64,000 nt of DNA from Paenibacillus polymyxa M1 (GTDB taxonomy: Bacteria; Bacillota; Bacilli; Paenibacillales; Paenibacillaceae). Positions within the stretch are counted from its first letter, which is position 1; the number at the start of each line of letters is the position of its first letter. The notes under the pieces were generated by a model. The model ran no database searches. It had not been told where the DNA came from and was given only the letters and a program-made list of their open reading frames with translations. Of this stretch, positions 6,538 through 39,813 are shown piece after piece. Position numbers and translations under genes: made by a program. The stretch is taken from the NCBI RefSeq assembly GCF_000237325.1, contig NC_017542.1, forward strand, positions 819,501-883,500. The letters are read 5' to 3'.

Positions 6538-6993
6538 ATGGTTACGTATAAAATTGATGAGGTCGCGAAACAAAGCGGTTTGACCAAGCGAACTATTCGT
6601 TATTATGAGGAAATCGGCTTATTGCCCTCCCCGCAGCGCAGTGAAGGAAATATGCGGCTGTATACGCAGGAGGATGTGGATTTACTAAAAAAAATAGTGA
6701 GTGCCAAGGAAGTGCTTGGTTTTTCTTTGCAAGAGCTTCAGCGTTACATGTCCGCAGCGGAAATGCTCAAGGGGCAGCGGGAGGAATATCGCGAGCGAAC
6801 GGAGCACTTGCAACCAATCGAGCGACGGGCCATGTTGGAGGATATGGAACGTACGCTGAACGAACAGTTGGAATTAATGGAGGGGAAAATCAACAGCATC
6901 CGTATGCTCCAGACTGAATTGGAAGAGCTGCGGATCAGGGTTCGTGAACGCAAAATCCTTTTGGATGAGGAACTTGAACACGACCCATCATAA
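6538..6993 (+). CDS. MerR-family regulator (YfmP-like)
   Basis: A 151-residue regulator with an N-terminal MerR winged helix (YKIDEVAKQSGLTKRTIRYY, then EEIGLLPSP and GNMRLYTQEDV) and a long C-terminal coiled coil rich in Glu/Arg (about 85-145) for dimerisation. There is no large ligand domain. A GTG at 6529 lies inside the AAGGTGG ribosome site, so ATG 6538 is preferred. It is 40 bp ahead of an MFS exporter. In B. subtilis the MerR protein YfmP represses the MFS pump YfmO, and this pair has the same layout. Confidence 0.88.
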   Translation: MVTYKIDEVAKQSGLTKRTIRYYEEIGLLPSPQRSEGNMRLYTQEDVDLLKKIVSAKEVLGFSLQELQRYMSAAEMLKGQREEYRERTEHLQPIERRAMLEDMERTLNEQLELMEGKINSIRMLQTELEELRIRVRERKILLDEELEHDPS

Positions 6994-7033
6994 CAAGAAT
7001 ATTTACATTCAGATGTGGAGGTAACATCATAAT

Positions 7034-8245: not shown

Positions 8246-8272
8246 CATTGAACTTCTGGGGAGGAAAAGAAT

Positions 8273-8701
8273 ATGAGCGAATTCAAACAGATTCTGGTCG
8301 CGATTGATGGTTCGGAACACGCTATGAAGGCATTGGAGACAGCCAAAACGTTGTCTAAGCAGCTTCAGGGAAACCTGCATCTGACCGTATTGCATGTAAA
8401 TCCGACTTTATCCATGAATGAGCCCCCGGTTGGGATTGATGTGGATGAGCGGATCGAAGAGGAAGGCCGTCATATTCTGGAGCCTGCAGCCGACTATTTG
8501 AAGGACGAGGGCATTTCGTACCGTATGCTGGCGGGTCATGGTGATCCGGCGAGTGTTATTTGCGAGAGTGCAAAGCAGGAAAAGGCGGATATGATCATTA
8601 TGGGAACACGGGGACAGGGACTTGTTTCAGAGCTGATCCTGGGTAGTGTGAGTCATCATGTGATTCAGCATGCACCTTGTCCGGTACTGACGGTAAAATA
8701 G
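8273..8701 (+). CDS. Universal stress protein UspA family
   Basis: A 142-residue single UspA domain. It opens 'KQILVAIDGSEHAMKALETA' and closes with the nucleotide-binding motif GTRGQGLVSELILGSVS..HAPCPVLTV, the G-2x-G-9x-G(S/T) type of ATP-binding Usps. GGGAGG precedes the ATG. It is 27 bp downstream of the MFS gene and 43 bp upstream of the aldehyde dehydrogenase, so probably co-transcribed and induced by the same stress. Confidence 0.93.
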   Translation: MSEFKQILVAIDGSEHAMKALETAKTLSKQLQGNLHLTVLHVNPTLSMNEPPVGIDVDERIEEEGRHILEPAADYLKDEGISYRMLAGHGDPASVICESAKQEKADMIIMGTRGQGLVSELILGSVSHHVIQHAPCPVLTVK

Positions 8702-8744
8702 ATGTTAAAAGGAACATTGATATAGAGAAAAGGAGGAAAAAAGC

Positions 8745-10163
8745 ATGCAGCAGCATTTATTTATTGGTGGTGAATGGCAAGTAGCTTCATCATATACGAC
8801 ACTGAAATCACCGTATTCTGGGGAAGTCATTGCTGAGGTAGCAGAGGCCACTGCTGAGGATGCCAAGACCGCTATTCAGGCCGCATCTGATGCACGTGCA
8901 GTGATGCGGGCCATGCCAGCGCACCAGCGGTCAGCTATTTTGGAGAAGCTGGCTGACCTGCTGGAAGAGCGGCGTGAGGATGCAGCACGTATCATTGCAC
9001 GCGAAGCGTCCAAGCCATGGAAGGCTGCGCTCGCGGAAGTTGATCGGACCGTGCAAACCTACAAGTTCGCAGCCGAAGAAGCCAAGCGCATTCACGGGGA
9101 AACCATTCCGCTGGATGCAGCACCGGGCGGCGAGGGCCGAATGGCCTACACGCTTAAAGAACCTGTCGGGGTAGTAGGAGCTATTACACCATTTAACTTC
9201 CCGATGAACCTGGTCGCTCATAAAGTGGGCCCTGCGCTGGCAGCAGGCAATACGGTTGTATTGAAGCCTGCGGAGCAGACACCGCTATCGGCTTACTTGA
9301 TCGCGGAACTGCTGGAGCAGGCTGGGTTGCCTGCGGGCGCTCTTAACGTGATCAGCGGCGATGGTAAAACCATTGGCGACGTACTTGTCACTGATCCGCG
9401 CGTTAGCTATATCACTTTTACCGGTAGTCCGGCGGTCGGTACAGAAATTCGCTCCAAGGCTGGCTTGAAGCGGGTCACGCTGGAGCTGGGTTCCAACGCG
9501 GCTGTTATTATTGACCGTGATACGGATGTGGACGCGGTCATCGACCGTTGTGTAAGTGGAGCCTTTGCCAATCAGGGGCAGGTATGTATCTCGGTTCAAC
9601 GTATTTACGTTGTCGATGAGCTGTATGATACATTTGTATCCCGATTTGTAGAGGCGACTCAACGTTTAAAAATTGGAGATCCGCTAGACCCGGACACGGA
9701 CGTATCGGCGCTCATCTCAGCCAAGGATGTCGAGCGTGTTCGTGAGTGGCTGGAGGAAGCAGTCCAGGCAGGCGCGAGGATCGCTCTGGGTGGGCATACC
9801 GAAGGAGGGATTCTGGAGCCAACCGTATTGCTCGATGTGGACCCGACTTCCAAGGTATCCTGCCGCGAAGTGTTTGCCCCACTTGTGCTGATTCATTCCG
9901 TTAGCTCTGTAGATGAGGCTGTGAATCATGTGAATAATTCAATTTATGGCTTACAGGCGGGAATTTACACACGTAATATCACGACCGCGCTGGATGCAGC
10001 GGACAAGCTTGAGGTGGGAGGCGTGATGATCAATGACATACCAAGCTTCCGTGTTGACCATATGCCGTATGGCGGTGTGAAGCAAAGTGGCACCGGACGC
10101 GAAGGTGTAAAGTACGCTATGGAAGAAATGCTGGAAACCAAGCTGATCGTTATTAAACGGTAA
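8745..10163 (+). CDS. NAD(P)-dependent aldehyde dehydrogenase
   Basis: A 472-residue ALDH-superfamily enzyme. Visible motifs are 'AITPFNFPMNLVAHKVGPALAAGNTVVLKPAEQTP' (cofactor binding, about 142-176), 'FTGSPAVG', the general-base Glu in 'TLELGSNA' (about 248-255), and the catalytic Cys in 'ANQGQVCIS' (about 277-285). It is full length for the family and closest in feel to lactaldehyde/glyceraldehyde-3-phosphate (non-phosphorylating) or vanillin-type enzymes; the substrate cannot be fixed from sequence. AAAGGAGG precedes the start. It is the last gene of the MerR-MFS-UspA-ALDH unit and is followed by a terminator. Confidence 0.92.
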   Translation: MQQHLFIGGEWQVASSYTTLKSPYSGEVIAEVAEATAEDAKTAIQAASDARAVMRAMPAHQRSAILEKLADLLEERREDAARIIAREASKPWKAALAEVDRTVQTYKFAAEEAKRIHGETIPLDAAPGGEGRMAYTLKEPVGVVGAITPFNFPMNLVAHKVGPALAAGNTVVLKPAEQTPLSAYLIAELLEQAGLPAGALNVISGDGKTIGDVLVTDPRVSYITFTGSPAVGTEIRSKAGLKRVTLELGSNAAVIIDRDTDVDAVIDRCVSGAFANQGQVCISVQRIYVVDELYDTFVSRFVEATQRLKIGDPLDPDTDVSALISAKDVERVREWLEEAVQAGARIALGGHTEGGILEPTVLLDVDPTSKVSCREVFAPLVLIHSVSSVDEAVNHVNNSIYGLQAGIYTRNITTALDAADKLEVGGVMINDIPSFRVDHMPYGGVKQSGTGREGVKYAMEEMLETKLIVIKR

Positions 10164-10176
10164 ATAGCTATATAGA

Positions 10177-10238
10177 AGCCTATCTGAAGGACATCGAAAA
10201 TGCTTTGCGTATGTCTGCTCATTAGATAGGCTTTTTTT
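10177..10238 (+). terminator. Terminator of the MerR-MFS-Usp-ALDH operon
   Basis: AGCCTATCT (10177-10185) pairs with AGATAGGCT (10224-10232), followed by seven T. The enclosed 38 bases contain a second short pairing (ACAT/ATGT), giving a long hairpin. Confidence 0.85.
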
Positions 10239-10318
10239 CTCATTATTTGCGCGAATGTCAGATGAAAATAAAGTGTTAGACTGAAAAATATTTGGATAAA
10301 GCGTATTTAGCTTGAGTT

Positions 10319-11113
10319 TTAAACCGTTGGAACTGTTCCACCGTCAATATTATATTCACTTCCTGTAATAGAAGCGGCCCGGTCGGATACCAGAAAAGCA
10401 ACAAGCTCAGCGACTTCTTCTGGTAGTCCTGGACGACCAATTGGAATTCCTCCCAACGAGTCCATTAGTTGCTTTAATGCACTTTCTCGGTCGCCTGTCG
10501 TCTCAGCAATCCGATCAATCAAACTTTGTGCTGCCTTCGTTTCGATAAAGCCTGGCGCAACTGTATTAATACGAATGCCTTGAGGCGAAAACTGCTTGGA
10601 TAATCCTTTGCTGTAAGTAGTTAAAGCTGCTTTGGCCGCGGCATAAGCCAATGTTGCATCATATAGAGGCAAGCGACGTTGAATAGATGAAATATGAATA
10701 ATAACACCTGAACCCTTTTCCACCATAGCTGGCAGCAGTCCACGGTCTAAACGAACGGCAGCAAACAGATTGGCGTTAAAAGTTTGCTGCCAATGCTCGT
10801 CCGTCAAGACAAGAGCTCCCCCGGATGGGGCTGACGAGCCTCCAACATTGTTGACAAGAATATCTACATCGCCTAGGCGCTCAAGAACGCTGGTTACCAC
10901 TTTATCTACACCTTCAGGCGTACTAATATCGGCTGGAATAAATAGATCCGGATTTTCTAAATTAACTGGAGTAGTTCGAGCCGTAGTAATTACAGTAGCA
11001 CCTGCAGCCGTAAGTCTCTTAGCAATAGCCTCTCCCATTCCTTGGGTACCGCCTGTGACCAAGGCCCTTTTGCCTTTAAACTCACTTAAAATGCTTTCTA
11101 ATTGAAAACTCAT
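10319..11113 (-). CDS. SDR-family oxidoreductase
   Basis: A 264-residue short-chain dehydrogenase/reductase. It has the cofactor motif TGGTQGMG (about 21-28), NNVGG in place of NNAG (about 90-94), catalytic Ser in 'IHISSIQRR' and the catalytic YAAAK (about 157-161), ending with the '[16 protein letters not shown]' tail. An in-frame TTG at 11140 lies before the AGGAGGAATT ribosome site, so ATG at 11113 is the start. It is the promoter-distal gene of an NTF2/DUF1330/SDR unit with spacings of 84 and 32 bp, apparently under the WYL regulator upstream. Confidence 0.92.
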
Positions 11114-11197
11114 GTGAATAATTCCTCCTAATTTTGACAATGTGGTTGAGAACTACCTCTAGGTATCTTCACTCCGAGTTCACTTGTTTTGCGAACC

Positions 11198-11485
11198 TTA
11201 CACACTATCGACAATGATACCCCGGTACCGCCCTCCGCGCAGTCGATGCTTTAGGGCTTTTTGATAGGCTGGACTAAAGTACCAAGCTTGTGCTTCCTCA
11301 AAAGTGGGGAATTCCAAGATGGCCAGCCCTTCAATATCGGGTCCTTCGAGGACCTGGTATGCGCCATACATTGCTAGGGGTTTGACGGAATGTCCCGCCA
11401 AACCTGCCGGTGCCAACTGAGAATAGAGTTGGAGTTCAGTTTGATCGGTACTCTGTTCACGTATAAAAACAACATAAGCGGGCAT
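11198..11485 (-). CDS. DUF1330 family protein
   Basis: A 95-residue ferredoxin-like-fold protein matching DUF1330: 'PAYVVFIREQSTDQTELQLYS' at the start and 'GLAILEFPTFEEAQAWYFSPAYQ' (about 54-76), the most conserved family stretch. DUF1330 proteins are small dimeric alpha/beta barrels of unclear role, often encoded with oxidoreductases as here. It sits between the NTF2-like and SDR genes. Confidence 0.87.
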   Translation of the reverse strand: MPAYVVFIREQSTDQTELQLYSQLAPAGLAGHSVKPLAMYGAYQVLEGPDIEGLAILEFPTFEEAQAWYFSPAYQKALKHRLRGGRYRGIIVDSV

Positions 11486-11517
11486 ATACGTTTTCCCTTT
11501 CTTATTTTTTAATTTCT

Positions 11518-11868
11518 TTATGGAAGTGTAATAATCAGTTCTTTAATTTTATGGTTGTTTACTAGAAATTGGTGTTTAAGTAGGAGTGGGTCGGGAAGAT
11601 TCGATTTATCAAAGTCTCCGTCTACTTTCGCAATTACGACGATGGTATTATTAATGTCATCCATATCCACGATCTCGAAGGTGACATTCGGCTCCAATAT
11701 TTCTGCTTCACACCATGATTTTATGGCTTCCTTACCTTTGATTTCGCGATGGTTATCTAAGATCAACGCATCTTTATCGAAAGCGGATGTAAATGCTTCA
11801 AGTCGGGATTTGTTCGCTGATGTAAAGTAAGTTTCTACTGCTGGTGGCATGGATCTATGTGAATTCAT
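11518..11868 (-). CDS. Nuclear transport factor 2 / SnoaL-like protein
   Basis: A 116-residue cone-shaped alpha+beta protein of the NTF2-like superfamily: 'VETYFTSANKSRLEAFTSAFDKDALILDNHREIKGKEAIKSWCEAEI' is the typical N-terminal helix pair plus hairpin. Such proteins bind or isomerise small hydrophobic ligands, or are inert ligand binders. The first gene of a leftward unit with DUF1330 and SDR genes. The AGGAGGTTGAAGAATC leader supports the start at 11868. Confidence 0.82.
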   Translation of the reverse strand: MNSHRSMPPAVETYFTSANKSRLEAFTSAFDKDALILDNHREIKGKEAIKSWCEAEILEPNVTFEIVDMDDINNTIVVIAKVDGDFDKSNLPDPLLLKHQFLVNNHKIKELIITLP

Positions 11869-11936
11869 TGATTCTTCAACCTCCTATGGTGAGTATGTGG
11901 TGAGCGATAACTTCAAACTCATCATAGCAGTAATAA

Positions 11937-11962
11937 TATGACTACATGATGTCTTATTATAG
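11937..11962 (-). promoter_or_regulatory. Putative WYL-regulator operator, site A
   Basis: TATGACTACATGATGTC followed by TTATTATAG lies about 70 bp upstream of the NTF2-like start and overlaps the end of the WYL gene. It matches a second site in front of the WYL gene at about 21 of 27 positions and contains ATGAC-N8-GTC(T/A)T dyad symmetry. Confidence 0.5.
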
Positions 11963-12868
11963 AGGATCATTTAAATTTCTTTTCATCGTTTCTAAATGAG
12001 ACAATATTCTTGTACGTACTTGTTCGGGGCTAACCTCTATAAGGAGGGGACCAAAGGACAGCAGATAACTGTCCAACCAATTGCCTACAGGAAATTGTGC
12101 CGTGACGGTATAAGAGCCGTCTTCCCTCTGAGTAATTGTTTTCTCGGCAAATTCATCGTATACGCGGTAAGCTCCTTGAGCAGAAATGTGAAGAGTTACT
12201 TCAATGGTATGAAGCAAGTCGTTCATCTTTGTATCTGTAGCTGCTACGACTGTTCTTGGCTCATAACTAATTTCGGTAACTACAATCTCTTTCATTCGGC
12301 TAATCTTAAATACACGATAACTTTCGGTATTTAAACAGTAACCTTCCACATACCAGGATTTATCTTTAAACAAGAGCTTGGCAGGTTCGATGCTACGATA
12401 ACTCTGTTCCCCGGCGACGTTATAATAGCGGAACTTTATAACACGGTTTGTGATTATTGCGTTGCGTATAAGAGTGAATAGCTGTCTCTGGCTGTTTTGG
12501 CTTCCCCATGGCGAAAAATCTACTTCGATCCAGTTTCCCATTTCTTTTTTAAAAAGCCTACTCAACTTGTTTAGCACTTCTTCTACCTGTGGGATGGTAG
12601 CTGTAGCCACACTCTGAAGGGCCATTAAGATATCATCTTGTTCCTGCTCGGACAGTAAAGAGGTGTTAAAGACATAACCCTCCATCAATGATATTCCGCC
12701 ACCTTTGCCTCTACTGCTGTAGATGGGAATCCCAGCTGCGCTTAAGGCATCTATGTCCCGATAAATTGTTCGTGTGGAAACCTCAAAATGCTCTGCCAAT
12801 TCATCAGCAGTCACTTTTTTCTTATGGAGTAACATATAAACGATTTCAAATTGTCTGCTTAACGGCAT
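11957..12868 (-). CDS. HTH/WYL-domain transcriptional regulator (YafY-type)
   Basis: A 303-residue DeoR-like/WYL regulator. The N-terminal HTH_11 domain is 'RQFEIVYMLLHKKKVTADELAEHFEVSTRTIYRDIDALSAAGIPIYSSRGKGGG', and the WYL core appears as 'KSWYVEGYCLNTESYRVFKISRM' (about 180-200). GAGAGGTGAAGCTT precedes the ATG at 12868; an upstream in-frame start at 12892 is less well placed. It adjoins the leftward NTF2/DUF1330/SDR unit, and similar dyads lie before both units, so autoregulation plus control of that unit is likely. The ligand is unknown. Confidence 0.9.
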   Translation of the reverse strand: MPLSRQFEIVYMLLHKKKVTADELAEHFEVSTRTIYRDIDALSAAGIPIYSSRGKGGGISLMEGYVFNTSLLSEQEQDDILMALQSVATATIPQVEEVLNKLSRLFKKEMGNWIEVDFSPWGSQNSQRQLFTLIRNAIITNRVIKFRYYNVAGEQSYRSIEPAKLLFKDKSWYVEGYCLNTESYRVFKISRMKEIVVTEISYEPRTVVAATDTKMNDLLHTIEVTLHISAQGAYRVYDEFAEKTITQREDGSYTVTAQFPVGNWLDSYLLSFGPLLIEVSPEQVRTRILSHLETMKRNLNDPL

Positions 12869-12897
12869 AAGCTTCACCTCTCTCGGTAGCATACACC

Positions 12898-12927
12898 TTA
12901 TAACATGACATTATAAAGTCATATTAA
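12898..12927 (-). promoter_or_regulatory. Putative WYL-regulator operator, site B
   Basis: Read on the minus strand: ATATGACTTTATAATGTC then ATGTTATAAG, about 35-60 bp before the WYL start. ATATGAC-N8-GTCATGT is an inverted repeat. It shares ATATGACTxxATxATGTCxTxTTATA with site A at 11937. Confidence 0.5.
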
Positions 12928-13055
12928 GTGATTGCTCTACATCACACCCTAATGGGCATCAACTGGGGGACTTTATTTACTTTGAACAGCGATAATAACA
13001 CTGCCTTGGATCAGATCTTTTTACAATCTTTTATATAAAGTTGAACCAAAAGCAC

Positions 13056-13124
13056 TTGCAAAATAAAAAGGAATAAACTATACTGAGGCCAGTTAGTTAG
13101 TGATTGATCAATTACTAACTAACT
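13056..13124 (+). promoter_or_regulatory. Sigma-A promoter and 34-bp palindromic operator
   Basis: TTGCAA (13056-13061), a 17-bp spacer and TATACT (13079-13084) form a good promoter. Right at the expected start point lies a 34-bp palindrome (13091-13124) with perfect 11-bp arms AGTTAGTTAGT / ACTAACTAACT and core ATTGATCAAT, with one mismatched pair. It is a strong operator candidate for the reductase gene at 13290. Confidence 0.7.
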
Positions 13125-13243
13125 GATTAACAAGCAACGAGGTAACATTCATGAGCAAGAGACTGCTTCAAGTTTACTAAATGTATCTTTATTGGAACTA
13201 TGGATTGATAAAGATTCAGTTAGATGAAGAAGTATGAAGTTAT

Positions 13244-31764: not shown

Positions 31765-33105
31765 ATGGGCAAGTCTTCAGCGGGCAAACAAAAAGAGCAA
31801 AAACTAAAATGGTGGCAGCTGAGCTTGTTAGGAGTTGCAGGCACCATCGGTACAGGGTATTTCCTCGGGTCTAGTTTAGCAATTTCCATTGGTGGTCCAG
31901 CCGTGCTGATTGCTTACTTCTTGGCAGCAGTTGGAACGTATGTGGTGTTTGACGCCCTTTCGCGCATGACAGCAGATCATCCAGAACAGGGCTCTTTCCG
32001 TTCCTATGCTCAAAAAGCATTTGGCAATTGGGCAGGCTTCGGCAGTGGCTGGGTGTATTGGTTCTCGGAATTGCTTATTAATGGGAGTCAACTAACCGCG
32101 CTGTCTATATTTTCACGCTTTTGGTTTCCTCAGGTACCGATGTGGATTTTTGCGGCAGGCTTCGGGCTCTTAGGGCTTGTGATTGTTTTTTTTGGCAATA
32201 AGGGTTTTGATCGTGTAGAAAATGTACTCGCGATCATTAAGATAGCGGCTCTTGTGATGTTTTTGGTCCTAGCGGTAGCGCTTTTGGCAGGCTGGATCGG
32301 AGGAGGTAAATATAATCCGAAGTTCCCTCTCAGCTTCAAAGACTTTTTTCCAACCGGTAGCATAGGGTTATGGTCATCTTTTATTTTTGCCTTTTATGCA
32401 TACGGAGGTATTGAAGTGCTCGGAATTATGTCTAACCGACTTCAAAACCCGGAGGAAGCACCCAAAGCAGGAAAGGTCATGTTGATGACGCTGGTTGCAG
32501 TGTATGTGCTTTCGATTGGGCTGGCTGTGTCTATGGTACCATTAAGTGCCTTTAATCCGAAGGAAAGCCCTTTTGTACTTGCGCTCAGTAGCGATCATCT
32601 GGCCTTTGTGCCTCATTTGTTTAACGGAGTCCTGATTATTGCAGGGTTCTCCACGATGACAGCATCGCTATATGCAGAGACTTCGATGATGATTACCCTT
32701 GCTCAGGAAGGAGATGCGCCCACACTGTTCTCACGAAAGTGGAAGGGCAAATATCCTCTTTATGCACTCAGTTTGATCTCTGTTGGATTAATCTCAGCAA
32801 TCGTATTATCGTTGCTGCTACCGGGGAAAGTGTATGAATATATCACAACAGCTGCGGGCTTAATGCTGTTATATAACTGGTGCTTTATTTTGCTGTCTTC
32901 AGGTAAGTTACTGGAATCAAGCACATCGAGCAATATCAAACGCTGGATTGGATTATTGCTGATCGCTTTGGCTGTAGTCGGGGCCTTTTTTCATAAGCTT
33001 AGCCGCCCTGGGGTTTACATCAGTTTACTGCTGGTCTTGTTAATTGCAATATGTGACCTCATTGTTCAATGGGTGCGTCGAAAGCACGGCAAGGAGTCTC
33101 GTTAA
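31765..33105 (+). CDS. Amino-acid permease, APC superfamily
   Basis: A 446-residue permease with about 12 membrane helices. The substrate-binding unwound segment of helix 1 is 'GVAGTIGTGYFLGSSLAISIGGPAVLIAYFLAAV', and 'FAFYAYGGIEVLGIMSNRLQNPEEAPKAGK' (about 210-239) is the helix 6 motif, both typical of AAT-type amino-acid transporters. Substrate unknown. It converges on a LysE-type exporter gene. Confidence 0.9.
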   Translation: MGKSSAGKQKEQKLKWWQLSLLGVAGTIGTGYFLGSSLAISIGGPAVLIAYFLAAVGTYVVFDALSRMTADHPEQGSFRSYAQKAFGNWAGFGSGWVYWFSELLINGSQLTALSIFSRFWFPQVPMWIFAAGFGLLGLVIVFFGNKGFDRVENVLAIIKIAALVMFLVLAVALLAGWIGGGKYNPKFPLSFKDFFPTGSIGLWSSFIFAFYAYGGIEVLGIMSNRLQNPEEAPKAGKVMLMTLVAVYVLSIGLAVSMVPLSAFNPKESPFVLALSSDHLAFVPHLFNGVLIIAGFSTMTASLYAETSMMITLAQEGDAPTLFSRKWKGKYPLYALSLISVGLISAIVLSLLLPGKVYEYITTAAGLMLLYNWCFILLSSGKLLESSTSSNIKRWIGLLLIALAVVGAFFHKLSRPGVYISLLLVLLIAICDLIVQWVRRKHGKESR

Positions 33106-33125
33106 CTTTATCAAGAAGACAAGCG

Positions 33126-33758
33126 TTAGCGTAAAAAAAGCAATTGAAATGCCTGTACACCAAAATAAAAGCCAAAGCCTACAAGAGATAGACCTGACAT
33201 CCAAGAGATGGTTTTAAGCAATCCGGGTTTGAGAAATCTACGGAAAACACTTGAAGCGGCTGCCATCGTCACATCCCACGCCAACACGCCCAGTACAATC
33301 GCTCCGCTGTAAATCAATAGCTGTTGTACTGGATATGTATTAGCAACGTTGGCCAGTATGGAACCGTAAATACCAAGCCAGAAAAGGATGGAGAGGGGAT
33401 TAAACAACGACATCAGGAAGCCCGCAACAAAGGAGTTGGTTAGGGTATTGCCATTTCCCCTTAATTCGGATTCTGAAATCACACCAGCATTTTTGATGCT
33501 TTCAAGACCTGTATACACAAGCACGAAAAAACCAAACAGCCATAAAAAAGCTTTGACAAATGGGGAATTAAGAAGGTGGATCATTCCCAAATAGACAAGC
33601 ATCATATAGATAATGTCTGCTGTGATTGCACCTAGCCCAATAAACCAGGCGTGCCAAAATCCATTTTTAATACCTCGATCTAACTGTGCGGCATTGATGG
33701 GTCCAATGGGAGCTGAAAGTGACAGACCCAGAAAAACATACCCGATAAATGTATTAAT
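33126..33758 (-). CDS. LysE-family amino-acid exporter, ATT start
   Basis: A 210-residue LysE/YisU-type exporter with six hydrophobic helices. The family N-terminus (NTFIGYVFLGLSLSAPIGPI, with the 'APIGP' motif) is encoded upstream of the first ATG (33605): the frame runs back to an ATT at 33756-33758, placed seven bases after AAGGAGG, with no ATG, GTG or TTG that fits. Starting at 33605 would remove the first helix and the APIGP motif. Either ATT is used as a rare start or an ATG has mutated. The APC permease converges on its 3' end, and it is divergent from the frl-like locus, whose deglycase would release an amino acid. Confidence 0.85.
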   Translation of the reverse strand: MNTFIGYVFLGLSLSAPIGPINAAQLDRGIKNGFWHAWFIGLGAITADIIYMMLVYLGMIHLLNSPFVKAFLWLFGFFVLVYTGLESIKNAGVISESELRGNGNTLTNSFVAGFLMSLFNPLSILFWLGIYGSILANVANTYPVQQLLIYSGAIVLGVLAWDVTMAAASSVFRRFLKPGLLKTISWMSGLSLVGFGFYFGVQAFQLLFLR

Positions 33759-33799
33759 GGTGTTTTCCTCCTTGATTATTTATTGGACGTTATGTATTT

Positions 33800-33953
33800 G
33801 TCTCATTTAGTTTATTCGGACAAACCCATATGTAAGACCATATTTTTTTGTGCGTATAGGGTAGGCTTAGCCTCGTTATGTGCTGACCCAATGAATGAAA
33901 CCAATCCGAAAAGCAGCTTTAATCCTTACACAAAAGGGTTAGAGCTTTTTTTT
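33800..33953 (+). ncRNA. Possible small RNA or leader ending in an orphan terminator
   Basis: A strong intrinsic terminator (13-bp stem, two G-U pairs: 33915-33927 with 33934-33946, then eight T to 33953) reads rightward but follows no gene and ends 10 bp before the frlB promoter. The 100-150 bases before it include the pairing GGGT/ACCC around an inner GGC/GCC. It may be a small RNA, a condensed riboswitch, or insulation against transcription into frlB. The 5' end is a guess. Confidence 0.35.
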
Positions 33954-33963
33954 ATGAGGGGAC

Positions 33964-34027
33964 TTGACACTTTCGATGAAAGCGCTTATATTTATCTCGT
34001 AAACAATACGTTATATAACGTTATATA
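33964..34027 (+). promoter_or_regulatory. frlB promoter with cre-like site and operator palindromes
   Basis: TTGACA (33964-33969), a 17-bp spacer and TATATT (33987-33992). TGAAAGCGCTTATA (33977-33990) overlaps the -10 and resembles a CcpA cre site. Just downstream, TATATAACGTTATATA (34012-34027) is a perfect 16-bp palindrome, overlapped by ACGTTATATAACGT (34008-34021). The ATAACGTTAT core recurs before the GntR and amidohydrolase genes. The expected outcome is catabolite repression plus repression by the GntR protein. Confidence 0.75.
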
Positions 34028-34043
34028 GAAGGAGAGATAAAAA

Positions 34044-35012
34044 ATGAATGTACAACAGACGATTCAGACGATTAATGAACAAGCGAATGGGAAGATTTCT
34101 GAGGTTTATTTAGTAGCCTGCGGGGGCTCACTAGTTGATATGTATCCTTCAAAATATTTTCTGGATAGTGAAGCAAAGAAACTGGTAGCAGGGATGTATA
34201 CAGCGAATGAGTTTGTACATGCGTTGCCCAAACGATTGGGGGCACACTCAGTGGTCATCGTTTGTTCCCACGGTGGAAATACTCCAGAATCGGTCGCAGC
34301 TGCTAAATCTGCCAAAGAGAAAGGTGCTTATACCATTGGCTTAACCCACAATAGTGAAGCGAGCCTGCTTAACTATTCGGATTATTCCTTCCTTTACGAG
34401 TGGGGGGATGAGAGCGATGTTAAAAACAACCCGATGGCCATTATTCTAGAACTTACGGTTGAACTGCTTCAAATCACTGAGGGCTATGCGCATTACCCAG
34501 CTTTCCAGAATGGATTGGGAGCAATCAATGGGATTATTAACCGGGCCAAAGTCCAAGTTGAACCGCGCGCTCAAGTATTCGCTGACAGATACCGCAATGA
34601 GGAACTCTTTTATATCCTGACCAGCGGAGCATCTTATGGACATGCTTATGGCTTTGCCATCTGCTCGCTGATGGAAATGCAATGGCTTCATGCAGCTTCT
34701 ATCCATTCCGGTGAATTCTTCCATGGCCCATTTGAAGTAACGGATAAGGAAACTCCATTTATTCTGATGATCAACGAAGGACGTACACGGGCGCTGGATG
34801 AGCGGGCACAGACTTTCCTGAATCAGTATGCCGAGAAAGTGGAAGTGATTGATGCAAAGGAGCTTGGCATCGGAACGATTGCAGACGAAGTGGTAGAGTT
34901 TTTTAACCCGGTTTTATTTTACAGCATTGTATGTGTGTATCGTGAAGCACTAGCAAATGTACGCAACCACCCATTGGAAACTCGCCGTTATATGGGCAAA
35001 GTAGCTTACTAA
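34044..35012 (+). CDS. frlB: Fructoselysine-6-phosphate deglycase-like SIS protein
   Basis: A 322-residue double-SIS-domain protein close to FrlB/YurP. 'VYLVACGGSLVDMYPSKYFLDSEAKKL', 'VIVCSHGGNTPESVAAAKSAKEKGAYTIGLTH', 'LMEMQWLHAASIHSGEFFHGPFEVTD' and the terminal 'HPLETRRYMGKVAY' match FrlB landmarks. FrlB splits fructoselysine 6-phosphate, or other fructosamine 6-phosphates, into the amino acid and glucose 6-phosphate. AAGGAGAG precedes the ATG. It is followed 28 bp later by the FrlD-type kinase. The exact Amadori substrate is not readable from sequence. Confidence 0.9.
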   Translation: MNVQQTIQTINEQANGKISEVYLVACGGSLVDMYPSKYFLDSEAKKLVAGMYTANEFVHALPKRLGAHSVVIVCSHGGNTPESVAAAKSAKEKGAYTIGLTHNSEASLLNYSDYSFLYEWGDESDVKNNPMAIILELTVELLQITEGYAHYPAFQNGLGAINGIINRAKVQVEPRAQVFADRYRNEELFYILTSGASYGHAYGFAICSLMEMQWLHAASIHSGEFFHGPFEVTDKETPFILMINEGRTRALDERAQTFLNQYAEKVEVIDAKELGIGTIADEVVEFFNPVLFYSIVCVYREALANVRNHPLETRRYMGKVAY

Positions 35013-35040
35013 GCGCACCTACCAACAGGAGGAAACCATC

Positions 35041-35853
35041 ATGAAGGTTCTAGGCATTGGCGATAATGTGGTAGATAAATATGTTCATCTGCGCATGATG
35101 TACCCTGGCGGCAATGCGCTTAATTTCAGTGTGTTTGCCAAAAAAGCGGGAGTGGATGCAGCCTTTATAGGCGTGTTTGGGGACGATCACGAAGCACGGC
35201 ATGTAGAACATACCCTCCGTGAGCTTGACATCGATATTTCACGGTGCAGATATCACAGCGGTGAGAACGGCTGTGCACGTGTAACCCTGGAAGACGGAGA
35301 CAGAGTATTTCTGGGCAGTAATGAGGGGGGAGTGACACGTCTCCATCCATTGGAACTGAGCGAAGATGACAAGGATTATCTTGGCGGATTCGACCTGATT
35401 CATACTGGCTTGTACAGCCATACAGGCCACTTGCTGCCCGAGTTGGAGACACTGGGAATTCCTATTTCCTTTGATTTTTCAGATGATTTTACAGATACAC
35501 AGGTAGAACAATATATCATGCATGCCGATTTTGCATTCTTCTCTTGCAGCCATATGACGGATGAAGAGACACAGAATTTTATCCGTTCCAATCGAAAAAA
35601 AGAGGGGCAAATTCTGGTCGCCACACGTGGCGGTGACCGATCTATCGCCTATGATGGTACGAAGTTCTATTTTCAAATGCCCGATTCCGTTGACGCTGTG
35701 GATACCATGGGAGCAGGCGATTCTTATATAACTGCTTTTTTACTGAGCTTTTTGGAAAAAGGCAACATTCAGGCTGCTATGGCAGAAGGCTCAAGGCTTG
35801 CCGCCCAGAGCTGCCTGGTAGAAGGTTCCTTCGGATACGGCGTTCATTATTGA
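35041..35853 (+). CDS. frlD: Fructoselysine 6-kinase-like PfkB sugar kinase
   Basis: A 270-residue PfkB-family kinase like FrlD: 'GIGDNVVDKYVHLRMMYPGGNALNFSVFAKKAG' at the front (substrate lid and GGNA), 'FDFSDDFTD', and the ATP/anion-hole motif 'DTMGAGDSYITAFLLSF' (about 221-237) with the catalytic Asp. It would phosphorylate the Amadori compound at C6 for FrlB. GGAGGAAACC supports the start. Short for PfkB (often 300+) but equal to FrlD. Confidence 0.9.
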   Translation: MKVLGIGDNVVDKYVHLRMMYPGGNALNFSVFAKKAGVDAAFIGVFGDDHEARHVEHTLRELDIDISRCRYHSGENGCARVTLEDGDRVFLGSNEGGVTRLHPLELSEDDKDYLGGFDLIHTGLYSHTGHLLPELETLGIPISFDFSDDFTDTQVEQYIMHADFAFFSCSHMTDEETQNFIRSNRKKEGQILVATRGGDRSIAYDGTKFYFQMPDSVDAVDTMGAGDSYITAFLLSFLEKGNIQAAMAEGSRLAAQSCLVEGSFGYGVHY

Positions 35854-35916
35854 CGATCCTTTTCGAATATCTTCACTTGTAAGAATATGTAACCTTTGAT
35901 ACTCTAAGTGAGAGTG

Positions 35917-35930
35917 ATATAACGTTATAT
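35917..35930 (+). promoter_or_regulatory. Operator palindrome before the GntR gene
   Basis: ATATAACGTTATAT, a 14-bp perfect palindrome 18 bp before the GntR start, identical to the core of the site at the frlB promoter. It implies autoregulation. Confidence 0.75.
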
Positions 35931-35948
35931 GACAAGTGAGGGTACATT

Positions 35949-36662
35949 ATGTTAAATTCAGACCAAGCGGAGCCATTATATATTCAATTACAAAAAGCGG
36001 TCAAAACCGCAATTCATAATGGAACATTTACGCAAGGAAGTCGTATACCGACCGAAACAGAATTAAGCGAAATGTATAATGTAAGTCGAATTACTGTAAG
36101 GAAAGCAATTGCCGAATTAGTTCATGAAGGTTATCTGACCAAACGTCAGGGAAAAGGAACCTTTGTCAATATCCCCAAAATTGGACGGAAGATTGAGCAT
36201 GTGATCAGCTTTACGGCTGCTTGCAAATCCAACGGGCTTTCTTCACACAGTGAGGTTACAAAACGTGAAATCATAGCAGCAGATGAAGAAATTGCACATC
36301 AGTTGCAGCTATCGCCAGGAGAAAAAGTGTTATTTATCCAGCGTAAAAGATATGCGGATGATCGTCCCCTGATGCTGGAAAACAATTTTTATCCTTATGA
36401 ACGCTTTGCATTTCTAATGCACGAGCAGTTGGAGGGGTCTGTATACGAACTGCTGCGGCAAAAATACAGCATCGACCCTAACCAGCCAGGAGAGACGATA
36501 TTACAAATTGCCTTGGCGGATGAAAATCAGGCCAAATTGCTGGAGACGGCGATCGGGCAGGCGTTGTTTTACATGCATACCATTATCTATGACCAGCATG
36601 GAAGCCCGGTTCATGTAGGAAAACAGTACATCATCGGAGACCGCTACCAATTCTCCATATAA
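35949..36662 (+). CDS. GntR/UTRA-family regulator (FrlR-like)
   Basis: A 237-residue GntR-HutC regulator. The winged helix is 'IPTETELSEMYNVSRITVRKAIAELVHEGYLTKRQGKGTFV' (about 33-73); the UTRA ligand domain follows (about 95-235, 'LQLSPGEKVLFIQRKRYADDRPLMLENNFYPYERF'). HutC-type regulators bind phosphorylated sugars or amino-acid derivatives. The three ATAACGTTAT sites around frlB, this gene and the amidohydrolase are its likely operators. In B. subtilis FrlR represses the frl operon; the role here is inferred from that. Confidence 0.92.
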   Translation: MLNSDQAEPLYIQLQKAVKTAIHNGTFTQGSRIPTETELSEMYNVSRITVRKAIAELVHEGYLTKRQGKGTFVNIPKIGRKIEHVISFTAACKSNGLSSHSEVTKREIIAADEEIAHQLQLSPGEKVLFIQRKRYADDRPLMLENNFYPYERFAFLMHEQLEGSVYELLRQKYSIDPNQPGETILQIALADENQAKLLETAIGQALFYMHTIIYDQHGSPVHVGKQYIIGDRYQFSI

Positions 36663-36736
36663 TCCGTTACCTGTTATGCAAGGTAGTTCAGGTACGTCTG
36701 GCTTCTGCTTCCATCCAATAGGGAGAAGCAGAAGCA

Positions 36737-36762
36737 TTGACATAACGTTATATTACGTCATG
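36737..36762 (+). promoter_or_regulatory. Operator/-35 of the amidohydrolase-carrier unit
   Basis: TTGACA (36737-36742) runs into ATAACGTTAT (36742-36751), the same palindromic core as at 34012 and 35917, and TGACATAACG...TTACGTCA extends the dyad. A -10 at 17 bp is poor (ATGTTG). Repressor binding would block the -35. Confidence 0.65.
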
Positions 36763-36796
36763 TTGTTAGGTGAATCAATCATGAGGTGGTGAAACT

Positions 36797-38380
36797 ATGC
36801 AAGGGATGAAAGATACATTAGCAGACAAAGTATTACTCTCCAATGCTATTTTTAATGGATTGGAAAATGAAGCTTCGCCCGGGTTTATTGCAGTGCGAGG
36901 AGAACGTATTGCAGCAGTGGGGCATCCGGAAGAGGCACAAGCCTGGATAGGATCGGAAACGGTTGTCTATGATCTGGGCGATGCCTTTATCATGCCGGGA
37001 ATTCATGACAACCATGTATTTTTCACCGGATATATGTCAATGCATCGGGGCGTGGATCTGACGCATACAGCCTCAAGTGAAGAAGCAGTGCAACTACTGC
37101 TGCAAGAGGCAAACCACCTTCCATCAGGAAAAGATGTAACCGCTTACGGTTGGAGCGAGGAAAAATGGGGTGAGCTGCCTGAGCCAAGCTTGTTGGATGG
37201 ATTGTTTCCCGATCGGGCGGTCATCGCCATCAACCAAAATAAAAGTTACTGCTGGATGAATCGATTGGCTGAGGAGAGATATCAATTTTCGCCAGATCAA
37301 TGCAGTGCCGAAGCACGCGCTTTACTGCTCCAAGCTATGATGCAGGACCGTAGCCTTGTCCAACAAGAGTTTATGGAATTTTGCCGCCTGCTGGCTGCAC
37401 GAGGGGTTACTTCTATAAAAGATATTGGCTTTGACCGGCATAGCGAGCTGCTTCCAATTCTAGAGGAATTGAAAGAAACAGGTGAACTTCCACTCCGGTT
37501 TCATTTCTCGCTGGAACCGGTTGTCGAACCGTTTGATATAAGTATTGGTATCAAGTATAAGGCACTTTATCATGGAGACCTTATTCGTTTTCAAGGCTAC
37601 AAGCTGATGCTTGACGGCGTCGTAGCCGATCATACAGGGGATATGTTGGAGCCTTACGCAGATATGCCTGGAGTCACGAATTTGAGGGCGGTCGATTACG
37701 AAAAAATTGAAGCCTCAGTTCTGGAAGCGGACAGCCAGGGGATCAAATGCTGCCTAACTGCAGAAGGCGATGCTGCGATTCGCCAAGCAGTATCCATGAT
37801 TGAAAAATGCCGCGCGCAGCAAGGCAATCACCTTATCAGACATTCGATCAGTGATCTGGAGTATCCTCATCCAGATGACCTGAACAGAATGGGAGAAAAC
37901 GAAATTTTTGCCGAGGTCTATGCTCAGATTTTGCTGCTAAATCCCTCTTACGAAGAGGCTTATATGTCTGCTGTGGCAGGCAAAGAGAATGAAAACCGTT
38001 TTTATAATTATAAGTCCATGCTGGAAGCTAACGTGCCGATCACTATAGGTACTGATTTGCCTTTATTTATCACCAGTGTCCCCGATTCGCTGTATGCGGC
38101 CTCTCACCGATTATTCCCGGATGGCTCACCTGCTGGAGGCTGGTATCCTGACCAAGGAATGCCGGCATCCGAAGTTTTAAAGGCATGGACCATTAATGGA
38201 GCCAAACATTGTTATATGGAAGAGGTTACAGGTACGCTGGAGGCTGGAAAATATGCTGACATCGCCGTTTTTGATCGCGACCTCCTTAATGCATCCGCTG
38301 GTGACATCAGGGATGCCCAAGTGATATTGACCATTATGGGAGGGAAGGTTACGTATAACCATTCTTGGAATGAGGGATAA
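36797..38380 (+). CDS. YtcJ-like amidohydrolase with altered metal ligands
   Basis: A 527-residue protein of the Amidohydro_3/YtcJ group. The composite N- and C-terminal barrel edge (LADKVLLSNAIFNG..., TLEAGKYADIAVFDRDLL) and an 'HSISDLEYPHPDD' motif are present. The usual metal motif after 'MPG' reads 'IHDNHVFFTG', so the second His of HxH is Phe, and the usual 'HAIGD' segment reads 'LTAEGD'. It may use a different metal set or substrate. It shares the frl operator core and is 3 bp from the YfcC carrier gene, suggesting hydrolysis of an acylated or peptide-linked form of the imported compound. The substrate is an inference. Confidence 0.82.
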   Translation: MQGMKDTLADKVLLSNAIFNGLENEASPGFIAVRGERIAAVGHPEEAQAWIGSETVVYDLGDAFIMPGIHDNHVFFTGYMSMHRGVDLTHTASSEEAVQLLLQEANHLPSGKDVTAYGWSEEKWGELPEPSLLDGLFPDRAVIAINQNKSYCWMNRLAEERYQFSPDQCSAEARALLLQAMMQDRSLVQQEFMEFCRLLAARGVTSIKDIGFDRHSELLPILEELKETGELPLRFHFSLEPVVEPFDISIGIKYKALYHGDLIRFQGYKLMLDGVVADHTGDMLEPYADMPGVTNLRAVDYEKIEASVLEADSQGIKCCLTAEGDAAIRQAVSMIEKCRAQQGNHLIRHSISDLEYPHPDDLNRMGENEIFAEVYAQILLLNPSYEEAYMSAVAGKENENRFYNYKSMLEANVPITIGTDLPLFITSVPDSLYAASHRLFPDGSPAGGWYPDQGMPASEVLKAWTINGAKHCYMEEVTGTLEAGKYADIAVFDRDLLNASAGDIRDAQVILTIMGGKVTYNHSWNEG

Positions 38381-38382
38381 AC

Positions 38383-39813
38383 ATGAACATCACGAATAAA
38401 AAATGGAAATTATCCTTGCCCCATAGTTATACCTTAATATTCTTGATTATTATTACAGTCGCCGCGTTGACATGGGTTGTACCCAGCGGTCAATTTGAGC
38501 GTCATGAAGTGACAGTGAACGGTGTGACCAAAACGGCAATCGTTTCAGGAACCTATCACTCTGTACCCAAAACAGGGGAGAACGGCGATTTAAGACAGGG
38601 AATCCCTCAGATCCTTAGCGCTCCTATTGAGGGGATTATCAATGCCGCCGATGTCGTCTCTTTTGTTCTTATTGTAGGCGGCTCCTTCGGTATTATTCTG
38701 CAGACAGGCGCCATTGATCGTGCGCTGACAGCTCTTGCCAGGCGGTTGAAGAATAAAGGGATTTTGCTTATTCCCATTGCTATGGTTATCTTCAGTCTCG
38801 GAGGTTCTACCTTTGGGATGAGTGAAGAAATTATTCCACTTTATGCGATTTTCATTCCGTTGATGTTTGCCTTGGGTTTCGACTCTATGACAGCGATTCT
38901 TATTTTATTTCTGGGAACGCAAATTGGCTATGTTGGTTCGACTGTCAATCCATTTTCAGTGTTGATTGCCCAGGGAATCGCAGGAGTGGAGGGGAATCCT
39001 CAGCTCTGGCTGAGATTTATCGAATGGCTTGTATTTACGATGATTTCTATTGCTTTTACGATGTGGTATGCGCACCGGGTGAAGCGAAATCCGGAGAAAT
39101 CCCTCGTGTTTCAAAGTGATATTATAAACCGCGAGCAATTTATTAAGGAAAGCACAGGCGAGGACGTCGTCTTCACATTCCGGGACAAATTAATTATAGG
39201 TGGATTTATTGTAACGCTTGGAGCGATTGTCTGGGGAATTTTGGTCAAAGGCTGGTATATGACTGAGATCGGCGCCCTTTTCTTTGCCCTTGGTATTTTT
39301 GTTGGGGTTGTCACCAAAATGAGTCAGAAGGAGATAGCTGAGAATTTTGTAAAAGGATGCGGAGAATTTATCTACGCCGCGGTGATCATAGGCCTCGCCC
39401 GCGGAATTCTGATTATCGCAGAACAGGGGATGATTATTGATACCGTATTGAATGCACTTGCAAGCGTCCTGGAAGGTTTGCCAAGTTATTTATTCACGAC
39501 TATTATGTTGCTTGCGCATAATATCATTACTTTCCTCGTTCCCTCTTCTTCGGGGGAAGCTGCACTAACCATGCCTGTACTTGCACCGCTTGGCGATCTT
39601 GTAGGCATTAATCGTGAAGCCGTAGTCACAGCGTACCAATTTGGTAACGGGTTAACCAATCTCATTTCACCGACAGGTGGAGTGCTGCTGGCAGGATTGG
39701 CCATTGCCCGGATCAGCTTTGGACAGTGGCTGAAGGTAATCTTCAAACTATTCCCGATTCTATGGCTGATAGCTGCTATTTTTGCCGCGATATCGGCTGC
39801 GGTGGGTATGTAA
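38383..39813 (+). CDS. YfcC-family carrier (ArcD/DcuC superfamily)
   Basis: A 476-residue membrane protein with about 12 helices. 'PHSYTLIFLIIITVAALTWVVPSGQFER' at the start and 'GGSTFGMSEEIIPLYAIFIPLMFALGFDSMTAILILFLGTQIGYVGSTVNPFSVLIAQGIAG' (about 145-206) are YfcC hallmarks; 'LVPSSSGEAALTMPVLAPLGDLVG' is the second half of the repeat. These carriers move amino acids, peptides or related anions with H+ or Na+. The gene starts 3 bp after the amidohydrolase stop, so both are co-transcribed. It probably takes the place of the FrlONM ABC importer or the FrlA permease seen elsewhere. Confidence 0.9.
   Translation: MNITNKKWKLSLPHSYTLIFLIIITVAALTWVVPSGQFERHEVTVNGVTKTAIVSGTYHSVPKTGENGDLRQGIPQILSAPIEGIINAADVVSFVLIVGGSFGIILQTGAIDRALTALARRLKNKGILLIPIAMVIFSLGGSTFGMSEEIIPLYAIFIPLMFALGFDSMTAILILFLGTQIGYVGSTVNPFSVLIAQGIAGVEGNPQLWLRFIEWLVFTMISIAFTMWYAHRVKRNPEKSLVFQSDIINREQFIKESTGEDVVFTFRDKLIIGGFIVTLGAIVWGILVKGWYMTEIGALFFALGIFVGVVTKMSQKEIAENFVKGCGEFIYAAVIIGLARGILIIAEQGMIIDTVLNALASVLEGLPSYLFTTIMLLAHNIITFLVPSSSGEAALTMPVLAPLGDLVGINREAVVTAYQFGNGLTNLISPTGGVLLAGLAIARISFGQWLKVIFKLFPILWLIAAIFAAISAAVGM

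What the first reader, a model, noticed from the sequence alone, without database searches (positions are those of the whole stretch)
33964..39813. Non-standard Amadori-compound (frl-like) regulon with shared operator
FrlB-like deglycase, FrlD-like kinase and a GntR/UTRA regulator are followed by an amidohydrolase and a YfcC-family carrier. ATAACGTTAT occurs before frlB (34012-34027), the regulator (35917-35930) and the amidohydrolase (36742-36751), which ties all five genes into one regulon. Known frl systems use an ABC importer (Bacillus) or an APC permease (E. coli), not YfcC, and do not include this amidohydrolase. The combination suggests uptake of a modified or peptide-linked fructosamine, de-blocking, phosphorylation and deglycation.
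Basis: partly seen in the sequence, partly recalled or inferred. Interest (0 to 1): 0.75.

Follow-up and report, generated by a model that had tools for sequence, protein, structure and literature searches.

The report
Mobile sugar-amine operon with odd enzyme
This Paenibacillus carries a self-regulated five-gene operon, also found in Klebsiella relatives, enterococci and bifidobacteria, that most likely feeds on sugar-amino-acid (Amadori) compounds and includes a protein of a well-known enzyme family whose usual metal-binding site has been rebuilt.

Summary
Five genes (SIS deglycase, PfkB kinase, GntR/UTRA regulator, amidohydrolase-fold protein "AmdH", YfcC/DcuC carrier) lie at 34044-39813, with ATAACGTTAT before three of them. 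Enterococcus and one Citrobacter copy are on plasmids. All 30 rows with an orthologous regulator (29 loci plus window) carry a related operator (ACGT-N6-ACGT) before the deglycase; five loci with other regulators or order do not. The cassette's deglycases form one clade (100/99), beside fra-like loci with Dcu carriers (98/77). The "de-blocking hydrolase" idea is weakened: AmdH has HxF for HxH, and two other metal histidines are replaced in 31 and 34 of 34 members, against 0 of 42 relatives outside the cassette, while new polar residues are near-invariant. That suggests a rebuilt active site of unknown chemistry. Substrate and repressor binding are untested. New variant of Amadori operon.

The parts
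33964..33992 (+). promoter-like TTGACA-17-TATATT before the deglycase gene
   Evidence: 11 of 12 consensus positions; such matches are not enriched in the region, 15 found against 13.2 in shuffles
33977..33989 (+). cre-like site TGAAAGCGCTTAT between -35 and -10 (CcpA catabolite control, inferred; consensus recalled)
   Evidence: pattern TGNAANCGNT at this place in 15 of 16 named Bacillales YfcC-type loci (L139 has C for the first T), in none of 3 Enterococcus, 5 Bifidobacterium and 5 enterobacterial loci
   Evidence: equivalent site before the deglycase gene in 30 of 30 rows with an orthologous regulator; only exact ACGTYATATRACGT in the genome
34044..35012 (+). fraB/frlB-like 6-phospho-fructosamine deglycase (SIS domain, 322 aa)
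35041..35853 (+). fraD/frlD-like fructosamine 6-kinase (PfkB, 270 aa)
   Evidence: PRK09813 213 bits, cut-off 247
35917..35935 (.). operator 2: exact palindrome ATATAACGTTATAT at 35917-35930, ACGTTATATGACAA (12 of 14) at 35922-35935
   Evidence: decamer exact in 7 of 7 close relatives
35949..36662 (+). GntR/UTRA regulator, probably the repressor (237 aa)
36745..36758 (.). operator 3 (ACGTTATATTACGT, 13 of 14), before the amidohydrolase gene
   Evidence: decamer exact in 7 of 7 close relatives
36797..38380 (+). AmdH: Amidohydro_3-fold protein with rebuilt active site (F75 for His; T321 and D353 for metal His)
38383..39813 (+). YfcC/DcuC-family carrier, starts 2 bp after amdH

Best explanation
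It is a dedicated Amadori-compound (fructosyl-amine) catabolic operon, a third type beside the frl-type and fra-like loci of the same genome. Inferred course: the YfcC/DcuC carrier imports the compound; the PfkB kinase phosphorylates C6 of the sugar; the SIS deglycase splits it into glucose 6-phosphate and the free amine or amino acid. The GntR/UTRA protein represses from ACGT-N6-ACGT operators until the substrate or its 6-phosphate accumulates; in Bacillales CcpA probably adds glucose repression. AmdH is an amidohydrolase-fold protein of the same pathway, probably cytoplasmic. Because its histidine metal site is replaced by a conserved set of Phe, Thr/Asn, Asp, Glu, Tyr, Gln and an extra Lys, I think it most likely performs a non-classical step on the Amadori compound itself (isomerisation, epimerisation or ring/lactam opening) rather than ordinary metal-type amide hydrolysis. 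Shown here: gene content, conserved linkage, operator footprint, deglycase clade, active-site replacement. Inferred: every reaction, the substrate class, location and repression.
For: Linkage: the deglycase and kinase genes lie in 34 of 35 loci found by AmdH sequence; all five genes in 30 of 35. Pairwise identities of the five genes rise together (Spearman 0.83-0.97, 27 rows, not corrected for species relatedness). Operator: 30 of 30 against 0 of 5. Deglycase: solved relatives 9otj 337, 3fkj 311, 3eua 278 bits; the MEMQW segment, whose Glu is Ala in 9otu, is kept, and FraB E214A is a catalytically dead Salmonella mutant (PMC12755824, passages). Tree: cassette deglycases one clade, 100/99. AmdH: F75 34/34, K208 33/34, E373, Y375, Q377 34/34 in the cassette and 0 of 42 in controls. 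Model pLDDT 94.5; H73, K269, T321, D353, E373 lie at or near predicted strand ends, D420 just after one.
Against: No activity, binding or growth data exist. AmdH diverges most of the five (mean identity 0.50; the others 0.56-0.68), is broken in congeneric G045, is in two pieces in Klebsiella L110 and is interrupted by IS16 in an E. faecium plasmid, so it may be dispensable. One cassette (L186) also has an FrlC-like gene. K208 lies mid-strand in the model, so its place in the active site is unsure. The operator pattern was derived from the same upstream regions in which it was then counted, and many loci are related. Sites before the regulator and AmdH are clear only in part of the Bacillales.
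Confidence: 0.72

Rival explanations
1. One reading: a modified or peptide-linked fructosamine is imported and AmdH, an ordinary metal-dependent hydrolase, removes the block before phosphorylation and deglycation.
For: AmdH matches Amidohydro_3 (E 2e-49); its best solved relatives are annotated metal-dependent hydrolases; H73 34/34, K269 33/34 and D420 34/34 are kept, and 3 of 34 keep the first beta-site His.
Against: HxH is HxF in 34 of 34, the second beta-site His is Asp or Asn in 34 of 34, the first is lost in 31 of 34; controls keep them in 41/41 (1 gap), 42/42 and 42/42.
Confidence: 0.2
2. AmdH is a non-catalytic amidohydrolase-like protein (a pseudoenzyme), for example a partner or stabiliser of the carrier or kinase.
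For: Loss of metal ligands; lowest mean identity of the five; broken copies in G045, L110 and L210.
Against: A new set of residues is kept across three phyla: N72, E373, Y375, Q377 34/34, K208 33/34, D353 32/34, each 0 of 42 in controls. Drift would hardly give this.
Confidence: 0.12
3. The operon is a fra operon (fructose-asparagine/aspartate) with carrier and accessory enzyme swapped; the substrate is the same.
For: Deglycase clade lies next to the clade of Dcu-carrier, fra-like loci (98/77); same set of roles (GntR, deglycase, kinase, carrier, accessory enzyme).
Against: The same genome has a fra-like locus whose deglycase is much closer to 9otj (517 against 337 bits) and which has a DcuA/DcuB carrier. 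Of 6 further such loci in relatives, 4 lie in genomes that also have the cassette (G908, G914, G979, G1029), so the two are probably not redundant.
Confidence: 0.2

Closest known systems
Salmonella fra operon (fraR, fraBDAE; fructose-asparagine)
   Same: GntR regulator, SIS deglycase, PfkB kinase, non-ABC non-PTS carrier, one accessory enzyme (PMC4072780, PMC12755824, passages)
   Different: Carrier is DcuA-family, not DcuC/YfcC; accessory enzyme is a periplasmic asparaginase, not an amidohydrolase-fold protein. No named Salmonella sequence was in the tree; fra-like loci there were recognised by Dcu carrier and similarity to 9otj
Bacillus subtilis frlBONMD-frlP
   Same: Deglycase, kinase, GntR-type repressor FrlR (PMC12632257, passages)
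   Different: ABC importer; no amidohydrolase in the operon as described there; deglycase less similar (3eua 278 bits; 3eua as the B. subtilis protein is recalled)
E. coli frl (FrlA APC permease, FrlB, FrlC, FrlD, FrlR)
   Same: Kinase scores 213 of the 247 bits needed for fructoselysine 6-kinase
   Different: No FrlA or FrlC in the locus; deglycase 97 of 430 bits. The frl-type locus of this genome is elsewhere (L071)
Amidohydrolase superfamily, Amidohydro_3 (3icj, 3igh)
   Same: Near full-length profile match, E 1.5e-61; high-confidence model of mixed helices and strands
   Different: Metal ligands replaced
K. pneumoniae Kp13 genes KP01294, KP01295, KP01297
   Same: Deglycase, kinase and an adjacent transporter already proposed for Amadori use (PMC3904158, passages); probably this cassette
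   Different: KP01296 is not mentioned in the main text; identity with the cassette was not checked by sequence

Membership tests
Amadori-catabolic (frl/fra-type) operon | SIS deglycase plus PfkB 6-kinase genes side by side | tested here: met
Amadori-catabolic (frl/fra-type) operon | Growth on, or activity with, an Amadori compound | not testable with these tools
   needs bench work
Salmonella fra operon | DcuA/DcuB-family carrier FraA | tested here: not met
   window carrier is DcuC/YfcC; DcuA_DcuB is in the other locus L070
Salmonella fra operon | Asparaginase FraE | tested here: not met
   none among the seven proteins of 31765-39813 scanned
Salmonella fra operon | Deglycase in the FraB clade | tested here: inconclusive
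   separate clade next to the Dcu-carrier clade, 98/77, below the tool's threshold; no named Salmonella sequence in the tree; 9otj taken as Salmonella FraB by inference
E. coli frl operon | APC permease FrlA and epimerase FrlC in the locus | tested here: not met
   the upstream APC permease (31765-33105) has no FrlA hit among the 25 families listed and is not found within about 5 kb upstream of the cassette in G060 and G059; no FrlC-like domain among the scanned proteins
B. subtilis frl operon | ABC importer genes | tested here: not met
   none among the scanned proteins
Amidohydrolase superfamily (fold) | Homology to Amidohydro_3 over the domain | tested here: met
Binuclear metal-dependent amidohydrolase (function) | HxH, Lys, His, His, Asp metal ligands (ligand set recalled) | tested here: not met
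   HxF, Lys, Thr, Asp, Asp in the window; pattern in 34 cassette rows against 42 controls
YfcC carrier family | NCBIfam YfcC equivalog cut-off (500 bits) | tested here: not met
   393 bits; Pfam DcuC is met (387 bits, cut-off 23)
GntR/UTRA (HutC-type) repressor | GntR and UTRA domains | tested here: met
GntR/UTRA (HutC-type) repressor | Binding to the conserved operator | not testable with these tools
   only co-segregation of operator and regulator shown

The most novel reading that the evidence does not exclude
AmdH is a new enzyme type within the amidohydrolase fold: the binuclear metal site has been dismantled and replaced by a conserved Lys/Glu/Tyr/Asp site that works on the ketoamine of Amadori compounds (for example through a Schiff base on K269 or K208, or a hard metal held by Asp/Glu), giving an isomerase, an epimerase or a second, phosphate-independent deglycating step. 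It would be the signature gene of a horizontally mobile third class of Amadori utilisation shared by Bacillota, Enterobacteriaceae and Actinomycetota.
Probability: 0.35. Interest if true: 0.8.

Novelty: new variant of a known kind. Interest (0 to 1): 0.6.

Why it matters
Use of Amadori compounds can give gut bacteria a nutrient of their own: fra in Salmonella is the worked example (PMC4072780, passages), and its deglycase is called a drug target (PMC12051030, title and start of abstract). This cassette is a further route, present in Klebsiella relatives and on Enterococcus plasmids (105 of 133 matching records typed conjugative), with a defined operator that lets the regulon be called in other genomes. 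AmdH makes a concrete test of how an amidohydrolase barrel changes chemistry.

Tried and rejected
The upstream APC permease (31765-33105) as the uptake gene: rejected, it is not found within about 5 kb upstream of the cassette in G060 and G059 and has no FrlA hit. AmdH as a plain replacement of the epimerase FrlC: weakened, one cassette has both (L186). Viral contigs: no relative of AmdH. E. coli: no near match to the Klebsiella cassette in a collection of 5,426 genomes (near mode only). Whether the P. polymyxa 'frl operon' of PMC11271205 is this locus could not be told from its text. A paper on E. raffinosus megaplasmids has none of six terms for the pathway (PMC10323788). Literature searches that could have shown the five-gene set; I saw no description in their listings or the passages read, in an open-access library that lacks most subscription papers. 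No paper was read whole.

Rows dropped before counts; 26 of the 30 five-gene loci plus the window (L119, L139, L142, L153 left out). L139 (broken amdH) left out; the 34 cassette rows are the window and 33 loci, near-copies included; the 41 controls leave out L026, L029 and L039 (fragments of cassette amdH), L038 (short hit) and L085 (a cassette); L152 is the 42nd. None of the controls has a deglycase, kinase or YfcC match in its held DNA (mostly 1.5 kb each side). L119, L120, L128, L139 and, of the second draw, L176, L183, L184, L185, L197 and L200 left out; L197 is not a duplicate and could have stayed.
Full report
OBSERVATION. The five ORFs are at 34044-35012, 35041-35853, 35949-36662, 36797-38380 and 38383-39813, all on the plus strand. 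Pfam gives SIS, PfkB, GntR+UTRA, Amidohydro_3 and DcuC. ATAACGTTAT is exact at 34015, 35919 and 36742 and nowhere else in the window; genome-wide it has 9 places against 7 for a reversed control, so its clustering, not its frequency, is notable. A TTGACA-17-TATATT promoter-like match lies at 33964-33992, with a cre-like TGAAAGCGCTTAT at 33977-33989 (the cre consensus is recalled).

CLOSE RELATIVES. Of 75 genomes of the genus searched (own included), 8 have the deglycase at 93% or more and 7 have full-length AmdH. In the 7 relatives among these 8 the order is the same as in the window and all 21 sites are exact. AmdH is broken in G045 and the carrier in G059. G007, G062 and G063 keep only scraps of the cassette, amdH pieces above all, at the same place, so it was probably lost there.

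OTHER AMADORI LOCI IN THE SAME GENOME. L070 (contig 1, about 1.82 Mb) has a divergent GntR gene, a deglycase (49% to the window's), kinase, a DcuA/DcuB carrier and an FrlC-like epimerase. Its deglycase scores 517 bits against 9otj. I take 9otj to be Salmonella FraB: the record says only 'SIS domain protein', but its variant 9otu has Glu to Ala in MEMQW, which fits the published FraB E214A (PMC12755824); no paper I saw names the entry. L071 (about 0.62 Mb) has FrlC-like, FrlA-like APC permease (565 bits, cut-off 800), deglycase, kinase and GntR genes, the E. coli type. The window locus is thus a third type.

DISTRIBUTION. Records of the plasmid collection with AmdH relatives include Klebsiella (L109, L110; both look chromosomal, L110 being 5.4 Mb and both having pyrBI and argF as neighbours), a Citrobacter freundii plasmid named pA-NDM-202212 (L111), Enterococcus raffinosus (L112) and E. 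faecium (L113), each with matches to all five genes together. In L110 the amdH match is in two pieces and has no annotated gene. The E. faecium cassette matches 133 records, all Enterococcus, 126 over at least 80% of its length. Of the 12 rows listed there, 10 span about 7.03 kb instead of 5.56 kb; in the one I read, IS16 lies inside amdH. A scan of one genome per species with AmdH motifs gave 35 loci. The deglycase and kinase genes lie in 34 of 35; all five genes in 30 of 35 (in L119 and L142 the carrier, in L139 amdH, is in pieces). L132, L149, L150 and L151 lack YfcC; a Na+/H+ antiporter-family carrier was found in L149 and L150 by Pfam, reads alike in L132 and L151, and is 80% identical in L200, the same contig as L132. 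L132 and L149 have a distant GntR gene (29%); L150, and by its reading L151, a LacI-type one. L152 (Pedobacter) has no match to the other four genes. Order is B-D-R-AmdH-YfcC in Bacillota and Bifidobacterium, B-D-AmdH-YfcC-R in Enterobacteriaceae, R-YfcC-AmdH-B-D in Olsenella. The scan chose loci by AmdH sequence, not context, but sees only relatives that share two short AmdH motifs.

OPERATOR. Before the deglycase gene, ACGTYATATRACGT is matched 14/14 in 26 rows; four enterobacterial loci have 12/14 but a full ATACGT-N6-ACGTAT. These 30 (29 named loci plus the window) are all the rows with a regulator at 46% or more identity; at most 1 of 200 first-order random sequences reached each score. 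L148 (regulator 42%, other gene order), L132, L149, L150 and L151 have no such site (8-10 of 14, p 0.175 or more). Caveats: the pattern was read from these same regions before it was counted, and many rows are kin. Before the regulator and AmdH the sites are clear only in Bacillales and not in all of them; in five Neobacillus and Bacillus loci a 13/14 site lies before yfcC; two Enterococcus loci have a 12/14 ATATAACGTTATAT-like site there; two enterobacterial loci have a weak one before amdH. The sites read as tandem GTYATATRAC decamers at 10-bp spacing (my reading).

DEGLYCASE TREE. With 76 rows, cassette deglycases form one clade (30 rows, 100/99) and the loci with Dcu carrier another (7 rows, 100/100), joined 98/77; the NhaC-type loci fall near the APC/frl type. 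The tool warns about long branches, L148 above all, and the root is a midpoint. So AmdH goes with two deglycase branches and two carrier types. In the second draw AmdH is in 7 of 51 stretches.

AMDH. The 34 cassette rows show H73 34/34, F75 34/34, K269 33/34 (N in L148), position 321 T24 N6 H3 S1, 323 E31 D2 Q1, 353 D32 N2, D420 34/34. The 42 relatives outside the cassette (20-29% identity for the 41, and L152) show H and H at 73 and 75 in 41 of 41 (1 gap), K 39 of 39 (3 gaps), H 42, I/N/T, H 42 and D 42; none has a deglycase, kinase or YfcC match in its held flanks. Cassette-specific residues include N72, E373, Y375 and Q377 (34/34) and K208 (33/34), each 0 of 42 in controls. Controls and cassette rows include near-copies. 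AlphaFold gives mean pLDDT 94.5 and pTM 0.93; no coordinates were available and no superposition was made (fold searches failed). The solved relatives 3icj and 3igh keep the histidines in the printed alignment. So the site looks rebuilt rather than decayed; the chemistry is open.

LITERATURE. fra and frl facts come from passages of PMC4072780, PMC12755824, PMC12632257 and PMC5270733. PMC12755824 states that fra genes occur in a few Klebsiella and Citrobacter. PMC3904158 proposed Amadori use for deglycase KP01294, kinase KP01295 and transporter KP01297 of K. pneumoniae Kp13; KP01296 is not mentioned, and I infer that it is amdH because in this cassette, not in fra, the carrier is the second gene after the kinase. 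PMC11271205 reports an frl operon in P. polymyxa group A without its genes in the text. I saw no description of the five-gene set or of AmdH's site in searches.

VERDICT. The operon and its operator are real and widely shared; Amadori catabolism is very likely; the substrate and AmdH's reaction are unknown; the peptide de-blocking model is not favoured.

Noticed in passing
L070 (G000 contig 1, 1812000-1831000), locus positions 8026-13196: A separate fra-like locus: divergent GntR, FraB-like deglycase, kinase, DcuA/DcuB carrier, FrlC-like epimerase. Not all ORFs of the stretch were scanned for an asparaginase.
   Followed up: partly
L071 (G000 contig 1, 613000-632000), locus positions 6602-11646: A separate E. 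coli-type frl locus: FrlC-like, FrlA-like APC permease, deglycase, kinase, GntR.
   Followed up: partly
window 33977-33989: cre-like site TGAAAGCGCTTAT inside the promoter, shared by 15 of 16 named Bacillales YfcC-type cassettes, not by the Enterococcus, Bifidobacterium or enterobacterial ones.
   Followed up: partly
L210 4109-6595: IS16 lies inside amdH in an E. faecium plasmid; 10 of the 12 plasmid rows listed have the same longer span.
   Followed up: partly
L079, L080, L081: Scraps of the cassette (amdH above all) next to RNase J mark its probable loss in three relatives.
   Followed up: yes
L186 about 6176: An FrlC-like epimerase match (34%) sits inside one Paenibacillaceae cassette, between the regulator and AmdH.
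   Followed up: no
L144 and L153, upstream of the deglycase gene: These two Bifidobacterium loci seem to carry a second tandem operator in front of the deglycase (read by eye).
   Followed up: no
L148 8001-9542: The Olsenella AmdH has also lost the conserved Lys (N at position 269) but keeps one beta-site His, a further variation of the site.
   Followed up: no
G000, the six other ATAACGTTAT places (L004-L009): Six exact decamers elsewhere in the genome; only 50 bases around each were looked at, not the genes.
   Followed up: no
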